Source: Bartonella vinsonii subsp. arupensis OK-94-513
GTDB lineage: Bacteria > Pseudomonadota > Alphaproteobacteria > Rhizobiales > Rhizobiaceae
NCBI RefSeq assembly: GCF_000278235.1
Contig: NZ_JH725037.1
Location: 780,580-843,671 of the forward strand
Length of the DNA: 63,092 nucleotides
Direction of reading: 5' to 3'
Made by a program: the position numbers and the translations under genes. The notes beneath the pieces are model-generated. The model saw nothing but the letters and a program-made list of their open reading frames with translations. It was not told where the DNA came from and ran no database searches. Every line of letters starts with the position of its first letter. Position 1 is the first letter of the stretch. Positions 52,904 through 57,512 of this stretch are shown piece after piece.

Positions 52904-53863
52904 ATGGTACCGTCGCATATTCGTTTGCTTATCATTGGCTCAGGTCCAGCTGGTTATACAGCGGCGATTTATGCAGCAAGAGCAATGCTCAAGCCCGTTT
53001 TGGTTACTGGTTTGCAGCAAGGTGGACAGTTGACGATTACAACGGATGTTGAAAATTATCCAGGTTTTGCTGATTCAATTCAAGGACCATGGTTGATGGA
53101 ACAAATGGCAAAACAAGCTGAAAATATGGGTACAAAAATTGTCTATGATAGTATTATAAAGGCTGATTTATTAAAGTACCCTTTTATCTTATATGGAGAT
53201 TCAGGAACGCAATATTGTTGTGATGCCCTCATTATTGCAACAGGGGCGCAGGCACGTTGGCTTGGTTTGGAAAGTGAACAGACTTTTATGGGCGGTGGTG
53301 TTTCTGCTTGCGCTACGTGTGATGGATTTTTTTATCGTGATAAGGATGTCATTGTGGTGGGAGGGGGAAATACAGCTATTGAAGAAGCGCTTTATTTATC
53401 ACATTTGGCAAAGAGTGTAAGTGTGGTTCATCGGAGAGGTTATTTTCGGGCAGAGAAAATTTTGCAAGATAGATTGCTTGCTCGTGATAATGTACGTGTT
53501 CTTTGGGATCATGTGGTAGAAGAAATTGTTGGTTTGCCAGCGCAAGATTCAAGAGGGGCTGTTGTGACAGGTGCGCGGCTTAAGAATGTTAAGACTGGTC
53601 AAGAAATTAAGGTAAATGCCGAGGGAATATTTATTGCCATTGGTCATGATCCTGCTGTTTCTTTGTTTGAAGGACAATTGAAACAAAAACAAGGGGGCTA
53701 TTTATGGACTGTACCAGATTCAACAGCAACAAGCATTGCTGGTGTTTTTGCTGCAGGGGATGTTGCAGATGAGGTATTCCGTCAAGCTGTAACCGCGGCG
53801 GGAAGAGGATGTATGGCGGCGTTGGAAGCGGAACGTTTTTTAGATTTGCAAGCGCAAAAATAG
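52904..53863 (+). CDS. trxB: Thioredoxin reductase
   Basis: The 319-residue flavoprotein reduces thioredoxin with NADPH. It has the FAD-binding motif IIGSGPAGYTAAIYAARA (residues 10-27), the redox-active pair C136-A-T-C139, the NADPH motif VVGGGNTAIEEAL and the C-terminal FAD motif GVFAAGDVADEVFRQAVTAAGRG. The length is normal. It lies 11 bp upstream of the LysR gene, so the two are co-transcribed, as in Sinorhizobium and Brucella. Confidence 0.98.
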   Translation: MVPSHIRLLIIGSGPAGYTAAIYAARAMLKPVLVTGLQQGGQLTITTDVENYPGFADSIQGPWLMEQMAKQAENMGTKIVYDSIIKADLLKYPFILYGDSGTQYCCDALIIATGAQARWLGLESEQTFMGGGVSACATCDGFFYRDKDVIVVGGGNTAIEEALYLSHLAKSVSVVHRRGYFRAEKILQDRLLARDNVRVLWDHVVEEIVGLPAQDSRGAVVTGARLKNVKTGQEIKVNAEGIFIAIGHDPAVSLFEGQLKQKQGGYLWTVPDSTATSIAGVFAAGDVADEVFRQAVTAAGRGCMAALEAERFLDLQAQK

Positions 53864-53874
53864 GAGGCTAAATT

Positions 53875-54780
53875 GTGACATCACCGTTGGATTGGGATAA
53901 GCTAAGGGTTTTTCATGCTGCGGCAGAGGCAGGTTCTTTTACCCATGCAGCCCAAAAGCTTTATTTATCTCAATCAGCGATTTCACGGCAGGTTTCCGCT
54001 TTAGAGCAGGAGGTGGGTGTATCCTTGTTTCAGCGTCATGCTCGTGGGTTAATCTTAACTGAGCAAGGAGAAATTCTTTATCGTACAACCCATGAAGTTT
54101 TGATGAAGCTTGAGAGTGCACGCTCGCAATTAAGTGAAAGTTGTGAAAAGCCAACAGGGAGTTTACGTGTTACATCGACCTTTGGAGTAGGGGCAGGATG
54201 GCTTGTGGAGCGTATGCCAGAATTTCTGAGTCTTTATCCAGATATACAAGTTCAACTCTTGTTTGATGATAAAGAACTTGATTTGACAATGGGGCACGCA
54301 GACTGTGCTGTTCGTTTACATCAGCCTCAACAGCCTGATCTTATACAAAGAAAGCTCTTTACAATTCATATGCATGTTTATGCTTCGGAAAATTATATTA
54401 CAAATTATGGCAAGCCAGAAACACTGTCTGAGCTGGATGCGCATCGTATTATTTCATTCGGTGAACCTGTTCCATCTTATTTATCTGGTTTAAATTGGTT
54501 GGAAAAGGCTGGTAGAAATGATGGGTCTTTGCGTCTTTCAGTATTACGAATCAACAATATCATCTCAATCAAGAATGCAATTATGTGTGATCTTGGTATT
54601 GCTGTGCTTCCTGATTATATTGTAAATAATGATGAACGACTCGTACGTCTTTTCCCTGATATAGTTGATATTCCTTCTTTTGATACTTTTTTTTGTTATC
54701 CTTACGCTTTAAAAAATTTGGCTAAGTTGAAAGCTTTTCGAGATTATATTTTTTTAAAAGCGCGTCAGTGGTCTTTTTAA
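53875..54780 (+). CDS. lsrB: LysR regulator of the LsrB/VtlR group
   Basis: The 301-residue regulator starts with GTG after AGGAGG. The N-terminal winged HTH (about 1-65: DWDKLRVFHAAAEAGSFTHAAQKLYLSQSAISRQVSALEQEVG) and the LysR substrate domain (about 95-290) are complete. The start MTSPLDWDKLRVFHAA and location after trxB are those of LsrB (Sinorhizobium, redox-linked, controls LPS genes) and VtlR (Brucella virulence regulator that activates AbcR2). Cysteines are at about residues 90, 144, 238 and 274; C238 agrees in position with a Sinorhizobium LsrB redox cysteine from memory. A small RNA locus lies right downstream. Confidence 0.9.
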   Translation: MTSPLDWDKLRVFHAAAEAGSFTHAAQKLYLSQSAISRQVSALEQEVGVSLFQRHARGLILTEQGEILYRTTHEVLMKLESARSQLSESCEKPTGSLRVTSTFGVGAGWLVERMPEFLSLYPDIQVQLLFDDKELDLTMGHADCAVRLHQPQQPDLIQRKLFTIHMHVYASENYITNYGKPETLSELDAHRIISFGEPVPSYLSGLNWLEKAGRNDGSLRLSVLRINNIISIKNAIMCDLGIAVLPDYIVNNDERLVRLFPDIVDIPSFDTFFCYPYALKNLAKLKAFRDYIFLKARQWSF

Positions 54781-54796
54781 TGGTGTAACATTTTAA

Positions 54797-54817
54797 GCTA
54801 TGTGTTTATTGCATAGC
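54797..54817 (+). promoter_or_regulatory. Candidate LsrB/VtlR operator (LysR box) for the abcR promoter
   Basis: A perfect dyad GCTATG-N9-CATAGC contains the LysR-type T-N11-A core. It starts 17 bp after the lsrB stop and its centre (about 54807) lies near -70 from the predicted start of the small RNA, a common distance for LysR activators. The protein that binds is inferred. Confidence 0.6.
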
Positions 54818-54879
54818 AGATACGCTGAAGTCTTTATTGTGCTTTTTCTTATAAAATGACATAGAGTATTATCTCTTGA

Positions 54880-54993
54880 TTATGTTGCCTCCCATTGCAT
54901 TTTCTTGAGTGTTCCCTTACGAAAGTCTGTCAGATTGATTTTATCTCTGGGGATTTTCCAAATTTGCCGGGCAGTTTGTCCGGCTTTTTTTTT
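54880..54993 (+). ncRNA. abcR: Candidate AbcR-family (alpha-r15) trans-acting small RNA
   Basis: Directly downstream of lsrB, about 114 nt with no open frame end in a rho-independent terminator. Near the 5' end are the unpaired, pyrimidine-rich anti-Shine-Dalgarno-like motifs GCCTCCC and, 20 nt later, GTTCCCTT, which are the hallmark of AbcR RNAs. A small hairpin TGGGGATTTTCCA precedes the terminator. In Sinorhizobium and Brucella, AbcR genes are controlled by LsrB/VtlR, and in Sinorhizobium they lie next to lsrB. A -10-like TATTAT is at 54867-54872. AbcR RNAs, with Hfq, repress many ABC transporter mRNAs. I could not align it to known AbcR, so identity rests on motifs, position and control elements. 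Confidence 0.65.
54966..54993 (+). terminator. Rho-independent terminator of the candidate AbcR RNA
   Basis: GCCGG and CCGGC flank a 9-nt loop and nine T's follow. The long T-run is typical of Hfq-binding small RNAs. Confidence 0.88.

Positions 54994-55466: not shown

Positions 55467-57512
<2,046 letters not shown>

What the first reader, a model, noticed from the sequence alone, without database searches (positions are those of the whole stretch)
54781..54993. Probable LsrB/VtlR-controlled AbcR small RNA next to its regulator gene
Just after lsrB/vtlR there is a perfect LysR-type dyad (GCTATG-N9-CATAGC), a -10-like TATTAT about 50 bp later, an RNA-like stretch of about 114 nt with CCTCCC and TTCCC motifs, and a terminator with nine T's. 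Known: in Brucella and Sinorhizobium, VtlR/LsrB activates AbcR RNAs. Inference: Bartonella keeps a one-locus version of the same switch, with regulator, operator and RNA in about 1.1 kb. That could control ABC-transporter mRNAs during host change.
Basis: partly seen in the sequence, partly recalled or inferred. Interest (0 to 1): 0.8.

Follow-up and report, generated by a model that had tools for sequence, protein, structure and literature searches.

The report
Bartonella AbcR RNA beside its regulator
Next to a stress-sensing gene switch, this Bartonella genome carries a small regulatory RNA of a known family (AbcR), and comparing relatives suggests the RNA is kept in some branches of the genus and falling apart or gone in others.

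Summary
The finding holds up. Window 54797-54993 is an AbcR (alpha-r15) orthologue with a LysR-type operator, beside lsrB/vtlR in a Bartonella close to B. vinsonii. The window copy is below the Rfam ar15 cut-off (25.4 of 40 bits), but the same locus passes it in 14 of 71 Bartonella genomes. M1 (CUCCCA) and M2 (GUUCCC) sit in the open loop and linker of a three-hairpin fold. Operator-to-M1 spacing is 91-93 bp in 55 of 55 intact genomes while the lsrB-to-operator gap runs from 1 to 1964 bp, so the operator goes with the RNA. Corrections: the conserved -10 is CATAGA (54860-54865), and the RNA starts near 54871. Unexpected: 16 of 71 genomes lack exact M1 and 12 of these also M2, none M2 alone; three have no recognisable copy. 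LsrB and its redox-cysteine pair persist in 71 of 71. Transcription, LsrB binding and targets are untested; target prediction gave no support. New member of a known kind, with a lineage-specific decay that my searches did not find in print.

The parts
52904..53863 (+). trxB, thioredoxin reductase, 11 bp upstream of lsrB (likely operon)
   Evidence: ORF; TIGR01292 388 bits, above its cut-off
53875..54780 (+). lsrB/vtlR, LysR-type regulator, 301 aa, GTG start
   Evidence: Pfam HTH_1 and LysR_substrate; best PDB sequence match 9hh1, 450.5 bits, E 1.7e-134 (that 9hh1 is the A. tumefaciens LsrB structure is my inference from PMC11975290); C144 and C274 conserved in 71 of 71 Bartonella and 5 of 5 outgroups
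54797..54817 (+). LysR-type operator dyad GCTATGTGTTTATTGCATAGC, centre about 63 bp before the inferred RNA start
54837..54842 (+). possible -35 element TTGTGC
   Evidence: cross-species alignment; weak, inferred
54860..54865 (+). -10 element CATAGA, aligned with CATATA in relatives outside the genus
   Evidence: alignment; not found by the consensus scan
54871..54993 (+). AbcR (alpha-r15) small RNA, about 122 nt; 5' end inferred
   Evidence: RF02345 full-length 25.4 bits, below its cut-off of 40; genus model R1 146.7 bits, but the sequence itself trained R1; fold z -2.74
54889..54894 (+). M1 seed CUCCCA in the 11-nt loop of hairpin 1
   Evidence: motif as defined in PMC5461406
54911..54916 (+). 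M2 seed GUUCCC in the unpaired linker between hairpins 1 and 2
   Evidence: PMC5461406
54921..54958 (+). hairpin 2
   Evidence: fold; covariation
54966..54993 (+). hairpin 3: Rho-independent terminator, 8 pairs then nine T

Best explanation
This is an AbcR (alpha-r15) sRNA gene, the only copy found in its genome, transcribed toward a converging aminotransferase gene from its own promoter. LsrB/VtlR, encoded just upstream in a trxB-lsrB operon, activates it from a dyad centred near -63. The RNA folds into three hairpins, exposes M1 in the first loop and M2 in the linker, and presumably with Hfq pairs with ribosome-binding regions of target mRNAs to lower their translation or stability. Shown here: orthology, synteny, operator-RNA linkage, fold with covariation, presence of hfq and of the redox-cysteine pair in LsrB. 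Inferred from relatives: that it is transcribed, that LsrB binds the dyad and activates, that Hfq is used, and that targets are transporter mRNAs. In other Bartonella branches the RNA has decayed, apparently M1 before M2, while lsrB stays open, so LsrB probably has further duties.
For: RF02345 has the best E-value of all families over 801 bases, at 54871-54988, full length, and is above cut-off at the same locus in B. tamiae and bee-associated Bartonella. Genus model R1, trained on 29 Bartonella copies, finds one match beside lsrB in each of 66 of 71 genomes and scores the 4 untrained loci outside the genus that I gave it at 48-73 bits (4 of 4). Pairs: 99.4% of cells paired, 27 cells with both-side changes against 9.1 in shuffles, slid controls 35-51% paired. 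Dyad-to-M1 is 91-93 bp in 55 of 55 intact genomes while lsrB-to-dyad varies 1-1964 bp; outside the genus it is 95-98 bp in the 22 of 35 loci where both were found. LsrB binds PabcR1 in S. meliloti and activity falls >22-fold on removal of the predicted site (PMC8844928, passages); VtlR controls abcR2 in Brucella (PMC5461406, passages). Hfq in 70 of 71 genomes; C144/C274 in 71 of 71.
Against: The window copy is under the ar15 cut-off, and in the genus-wide ar15 search with strict filters its genome gave no match even at E 1. No transcript data. The consensus scan shows no promoter at the inferred place. In the pair counts, further pair types did not exceed the shuffles (368 of 500 as high), and the structure was derived from the same alignment, which favours it over slid controls. 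Target pairing is no better than shuffled seeds for M2 (107 of 200 as low); M1 is better on the mean (2 of 200; 22 of 200 for the count of strong sites), which an anti-Shine-Dalgarno sequence would give with any gene. In 13 of 35 loci outside the genus no M1/M2 pair lies in the 2.5 kb after lsrB.
Confidence: 0.9

Rival explanations
1. The dyad and terminator belong to lsrB: an autoregulatory site and the end of the trxB-lsrB mRNA, with the conserved stretch being a 3' untranslated region rather than a separate RNA gene.
For: In 22 of 55 intact genomes the dyad lies within 30 bp of the lsrB stop.
Against: In 32 of 55 intact genomes more than 100 bp, up to 1964 bp, separate lsrB from the dyad, yet dyad and M1 stay 91-93 bp apart. 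A -10 is conserved between them across families. Related RNAs are independent transcripts in S. meliloti (PMC3712013, passages).
Confidence: 0.05
2. An anti-Shine-Dalgarno sRNA of another family (for example a cuckoo-like RNA) that only resembles AbcR.
For: Low ar15 score in the window; CU-rich anti-Shine-Dalgarno loops occur in other Rhizobiales sRNAs (PMC3927594, passages).
Against: Same locus, same two spaced motifs, same promoter layout, and intermediate sequences that pass the ar15 cut-off.
Confidence: 0.03
3. In branches outside the large radiated lineage the RNA is not decaying but retuned: M1 CUCCCA becomes CUCCUA, a better match to canonical AGGAGG sites. (Not exclusive of the best explanation.)
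For: CTCCTA appears in G004 and G014, whose copies still fold with hairpins and terminator, and in AR15-3, whose fold I did not test.
Against: In four genomes including B. melophagi both motifs are gone and the terminator looks degraded, in B. melophagi (L133) the fold is no better than shuffles (z -1.04), and in three genomes nothing recognisable is left.
Confidence: 0.2

Closest known systems
Brucella abortus AbcR2 with VtlR
   Same: Orthologous LysR regulator, M1 CUCCCA and M2 GUUCCC placed in loop and linker (PMC5461406, passages)
   Different: Brucella abortus has two functionally redundant AbcR copies; here one copy was found. Function untested here.
Sinorhizobium meliloti AbcR1/AbcR2 with LsrB
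   Same: sRNA beside lsrB, LsrB-dependent AbcR1, three hairpins (PMC8844928, PMC3712013, passages)
   Different: Two tandem copies with separate inputs (LsrB, RpoH1); here one copy with an LsrB-type operator
Agrobacterium tumefaciens AbcR1 with VtlR/LsrB
   Same: AbcR1 is regulated by the neighbouring VtlR (as stated in PMC8844928), whose site was derived from the abcR1 and atu1667 promoters (PMC7486931, section 10 read); conserved redox cysteine pair C144/C273 (PMC11975290, passages) matches C144/C274 here
   Different: The 15-bp VtlR site of that paper is in a figure I could not read, so site identity was not compared
Rfam RF02345 ar15
   Same: Full-length match at the window locus; over cut-off in 14 of 71 Bartonella genomes
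   Different: Window copy 14.6 bits under cut-off; hairpin 1 weaker and hairpin 2 longer

Membership tests
AbcR / alpha-r15 (RF02345) | Covariance-model match at or above the gathering score | tested here: inconclusive
   Window copy 25.4 of 40 bits, not met by itself; orthologous copies at the same locus 50.9-59.5 bits in 14 of 71 genomes
AbcR / alpha-r15 (RF02345) | M1 CUCCCA in the loop of hairpin 1 and M2 GUUCCC in the linker | tested here: met
   definition from PMC5461406
AbcR / alpha-r15 (RF02345) | Three hairpins, the last a Rho-independent terminator | tested here: met
AbcR / alpha-r15 (RF02345) | Location next to lsrB/vtlR | tested here: met
AbcR / alpha-r15 (RF02345) | Multiple copies per genome (reported for Rhizobiaceae and Brucellaceae, PMC3712013) | tested here: not met
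   One R1 match in each of 66 genomes; the first look scored 50 candidates a genome with strict filters, so a diverged second copy could be missed. I read this as a description of those families, not a requirement.
AbcR / alpha-r15 (RF02345) | Hfq binding and negative control of ABC-transporter mRNAs | not testable with these tools
   hfq gene present; target scans gave no support
LsrB/VtlR-activated promoter | LysR-type dyad at a fixed distance near -65 of the sRNA start | tested here: met
   the start is inferred, and the -65 rule is recalled textbook knowledge
LsrB/VtlR-activated promoter | Binding by LsrB and LsrB-dependent expression | not testable with these tools
   shown only in relatives

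The most novel reading that the evidence does not exclude
In Bartonella the RNA arm of the LsrB-AbcR circuit is being taken apart lineage by lineage in a fixed order (M1 first, then M2, then operator and terminator, then deletion), while the redox-sensing regulator is kept. This natural series would rank the two seeds by importance and show that LsrB's essential work in these pathogens does not need AbcR.
Probability: 0.5. Interest if true: 0.6.

Novelty: new member of a known kind. Interest (0 to 1): 0.45.

Why it matters
AbcR RNAs are described as always multi-copy in Rhizobiaceae and Brucellaceae (PMC3712013, passages), and in Brucella abortus the two copies are redundant (PMC5461406). A version with one copy found, one regulator and one operator in about 1.1 kb is a cleaner system. 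The graded loss across Bartonella offers natural comparisons of genomes with M1+M2, M2 only and neither. It also fits the B. bacilliformis sRNA survey, whose seven listed conserved sRNAs do not include AbcR (PMC7717549, passages including the abstract), since no copy was found beside lsrB or elsewhere in that species.

Tried and rejected
Feedback of the RNA on lsrB: the window's lsrB ribosome site GGAGGC pairs with M1, but most relatives printed have other letters there, so I dropped it (3 of 71 genus rows were not parsed).

A gltK-like permease gene (glutamate-type ABC transporter, L154) as M2 target: GGGGAACACT stands just before its start. The 7-mer GGGAACA is in the own genome and 0 of 29 relatives (these 30 are the best of 71 matched genomes). 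A shorter core survives more widely (GGAACA in 12, GGAA in 22 of 29 regions parsed of 30), and there M2 pairs better than shuffled seeds (0 of 200 as low). But the site was picked as the best of 130 genes, overlaps a Shine-Dalgarno and the end of the gene before it, and in 20 more distant genomes pairing hardly differs between M2 keepers (8, mean -10.1) and losers (12, mean -9.3), neither clearly beyond shuffles (18 and 38 of 200). So it stays an unproven candidate. The shuffles keep single-base composition only. In one search I first took a top-scoring ORF of L154 for a transporter gene; one search shows another, repeat-like protein.

Counting independent losses: lsrB alone and carB+lsrB for 38 of 71 genomes leave the deep branches open. 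AU tests do not reject one clade for the 15 genomes without M1 outside the radiated lineage (p 0.33, 0.16, 0.47) nor for the 12 M2 losers (p 0.13, 0.18, 0.23). So only a minimum can be stated: M1 was lost at least twice (DB5-6 and the others), assuming no regain.

Rows and slips: rows L007 and L019 came out empty through my slicing and L081 was not found by the pattern; they are not used from that call. In one search G049 scored as lost because its locus was cut short; I set it to intact by hand and confirmed it. For G062 and G039 the named loci L047 and L053 were used; searches show the genomes' own copies intact. One search stopped on an error of mine and was rerun.

Scope: the lsrB scan of genome contigs found 218 loci and kept 80, 45 of them Bartonella and 35 not. 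In 150 genomes of the order ar15 matches at E 0.001 in 18 and over cut-off in 5, so the Rfam model is narrow and absence of a match says little.

Full report
What is there. The window lies in a 1.79 Mb Bartonella genome whose LsrB is 97-98% identical to that of two B. vinsonii subspecies. trxB (52904-53863) is followed after 11 bp by lsrB (53875-54780). After the lsrB stop come a perfect dyad (54797-54817), a conserved CATAGA (54860-54865), the motifs CTCCCA (54889-54894) and GTTCCC (54911-54916), and a terminator with nine T (54966-54993). The next gene converges: a class I/II aminotransferase (55467-56669, minus strand), whose best NCBIfam match, aspartate transaminase, is below that model's cut-off.

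Is it an RNA of the ar15/AbcR family? At Rfam's own thresholds the window has only a tRNA. With a permissive threshold over 801 bases ar15 has the best E-value, full length, 25.4 bits against a cut-off of 40. Bee-associated Bartonella and B. tamiae carry the same RNA at the same place and pass the cut-off (14 of 71 genomes). Alignments of 29 Bartonella copies and of 44 copies including 15 from outside the genus, all picked by hand from intact loci, show a graded path from canonical AbcR to the window's form. The Bartonella alignment forms three hairpins: 6 of 23 pairs have both-side changes, 99.4% of cells pair, slid controls pair in 35-51%, while further pair types do not exceed the shuffles (368 of 500 as high). 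Related sequences can beat the shuffles without structure, and the structure comes from the same alignment, so the agreement with the published AbcR fold carries weight too. The window strand alone folds better than all but 3 of 200 shuffles.

Operator and promoter. In the 55 of 71 Bartonella genomes that keep M1 and M2, the dyad starts 91-93 bp before M1 (92 bp in 40, 93 in 14, 91 in 1), while the distance from the lsrB stop to the dyad is 1 to 1964 bp and exceeds 100 bp in 32. Outside the genus the spacing is 95-98 bp in 22 of 35 loci; in the other 13 no M1/M2 pair lies in the 2.5 kb searched. With the start at about 54871 the dyad is centred near -63, where LysR regulators usually bind (recalled). 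In S. meliloti LsrB binds and drives abcR1 (PMC8844928, passages); the same passages say that VtlR regulates AbcR1 in Agrobacterium; in Brucella VtlR controls abcR2 (PMC5461406, passages). LsrB binding here is therefore likely but not shown.

Regulator. No stop lies in the last 297 codons of lsrB in 71 of 71 Bartonella genomes; C144 and C274 are invariant there and in 5 of 5 outgroups, while C90 and C238 are not. C144/C273 is the conserved redox pair of A. tumefaciens LsrB (PMC11975290, passages). hfq is found in 70 of 71 genomes; the one without a match is 93% complete in about 600 contigs.

One copy. The genus model finds exactly one match in each of 66 of 71 genomes, and in 66 of 66 its coordinates lie beside lsrB (compared by eye). 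55 of the 66 are intact and 11 damaged. The search scored 50 candidates a genome with strict filters, so a strongly diverged second copy could escape.

Decay. 55 of 71 genomes keep M1, M2 and the dyad; 4 keep M2 but not M1 (DB5-6, G004, G029, G030); 12 have neither; none has lost M2 alone. 'Lost' means a departure from the exact motif: in G014 M1 reads CTCCTA and M2 TTTCCC, so partial function is possible. The four genomes G021, G024, G060 (WD12.1) and G064 (B. melophagi) have neither motif and, by eye, a degraded terminator; relics still score 29-44 bits with the genus model. B. bacilliformis (G009), its sister G050 and G032 show no match there at all. That M1 goes first agrees with Brucella, where only M2 was linked to virulence and most targets use M2 or both (PMC5461406). 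How often each loss happened is not resolved.

Targets. Over 130 genes (window and 30 transporter loci of the same genome) M2 pairs with start regions no better than shuffles, M1 somewhat better, as any anti-Shine-Dalgarno sequence would. The best M2 site, before a gltK-like transporter gene, is not kept exactly in relatives, though a shorter core is, and pairing hardly differs between genomes that keep and lack M2. The ABC-transporter role is therefore carried over from relatives, not supported here.

Literature. Searches for AbcR/VtlR with Bartonella, ar15/AbcR1/lsrB with Bartonella, r15 with Bartonella, Bartonella small RNAs and Bartonella LysR/small RNA listed no paper whose title, abstract start or passages that I read report an AbcR in Bartonella. 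Of the five listed papers on sRNAs that hold both words, I read the passages (PMC7143759 for Bartonella and LsrB; PMC3927594, PMC5596092, PMC4228915 and PMC6237742 for both words); PMC7143759 says only that a few rhizobial sRNAs reach Bartonellaceae. The library holds open-licence papers only and supplements could not be read, so an earlier report may exist. The B. henselae Brt RNAs (PMC5387305, passages) lie before helix-turn-helix protein genes and are described there as specific to Bartonella, so they are another family.

Verdict. A real AbcR orthologue with an inferred LsrB operator: ordinary in kind, useful as a system with a single copy found, and more interesting for its graded loss.

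Noticed in passing
L090: A record titled Bacillus subtilis SK6B4 carries an lsrB-AbcR locus like those of Pseudochrobactrum: probably mislabelled or contaminated.
   Followed up: no
L118, L053, L047, L060, L061 (lsrB to dyad): In a group of Bartonella around B. elizabethae, B. tribocorum and B. queenslandensis up to 2 kb of DNA lies between lsrB and the dyad; its content was not examined.
   Followed up: partly
PMC7717549 (B. bacilliformis): BbsR14 has two anti-Shine-Dalgarno loops (TTCCTCCTAA) and is a possible stand-in where AbcR is gone.
   Followed up: no
L078, L080, L083, L089, L092, L096, L097, L100, L101, L103, L104, L106, L108: In these 13 of 35 loci outside Bartonella (most titled Brucella or Ochrobactrum) no M1/M2 pair lies in the 2.5 kb after lsrB, so abcR there lies farther off or elsewhere.
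   Followed up: no
L130, L132, L135 (lsrB start): In three related genomes the usual GTG start of lsrB is not at the expected place, so the start codon there is unclear.
   Followed up: no
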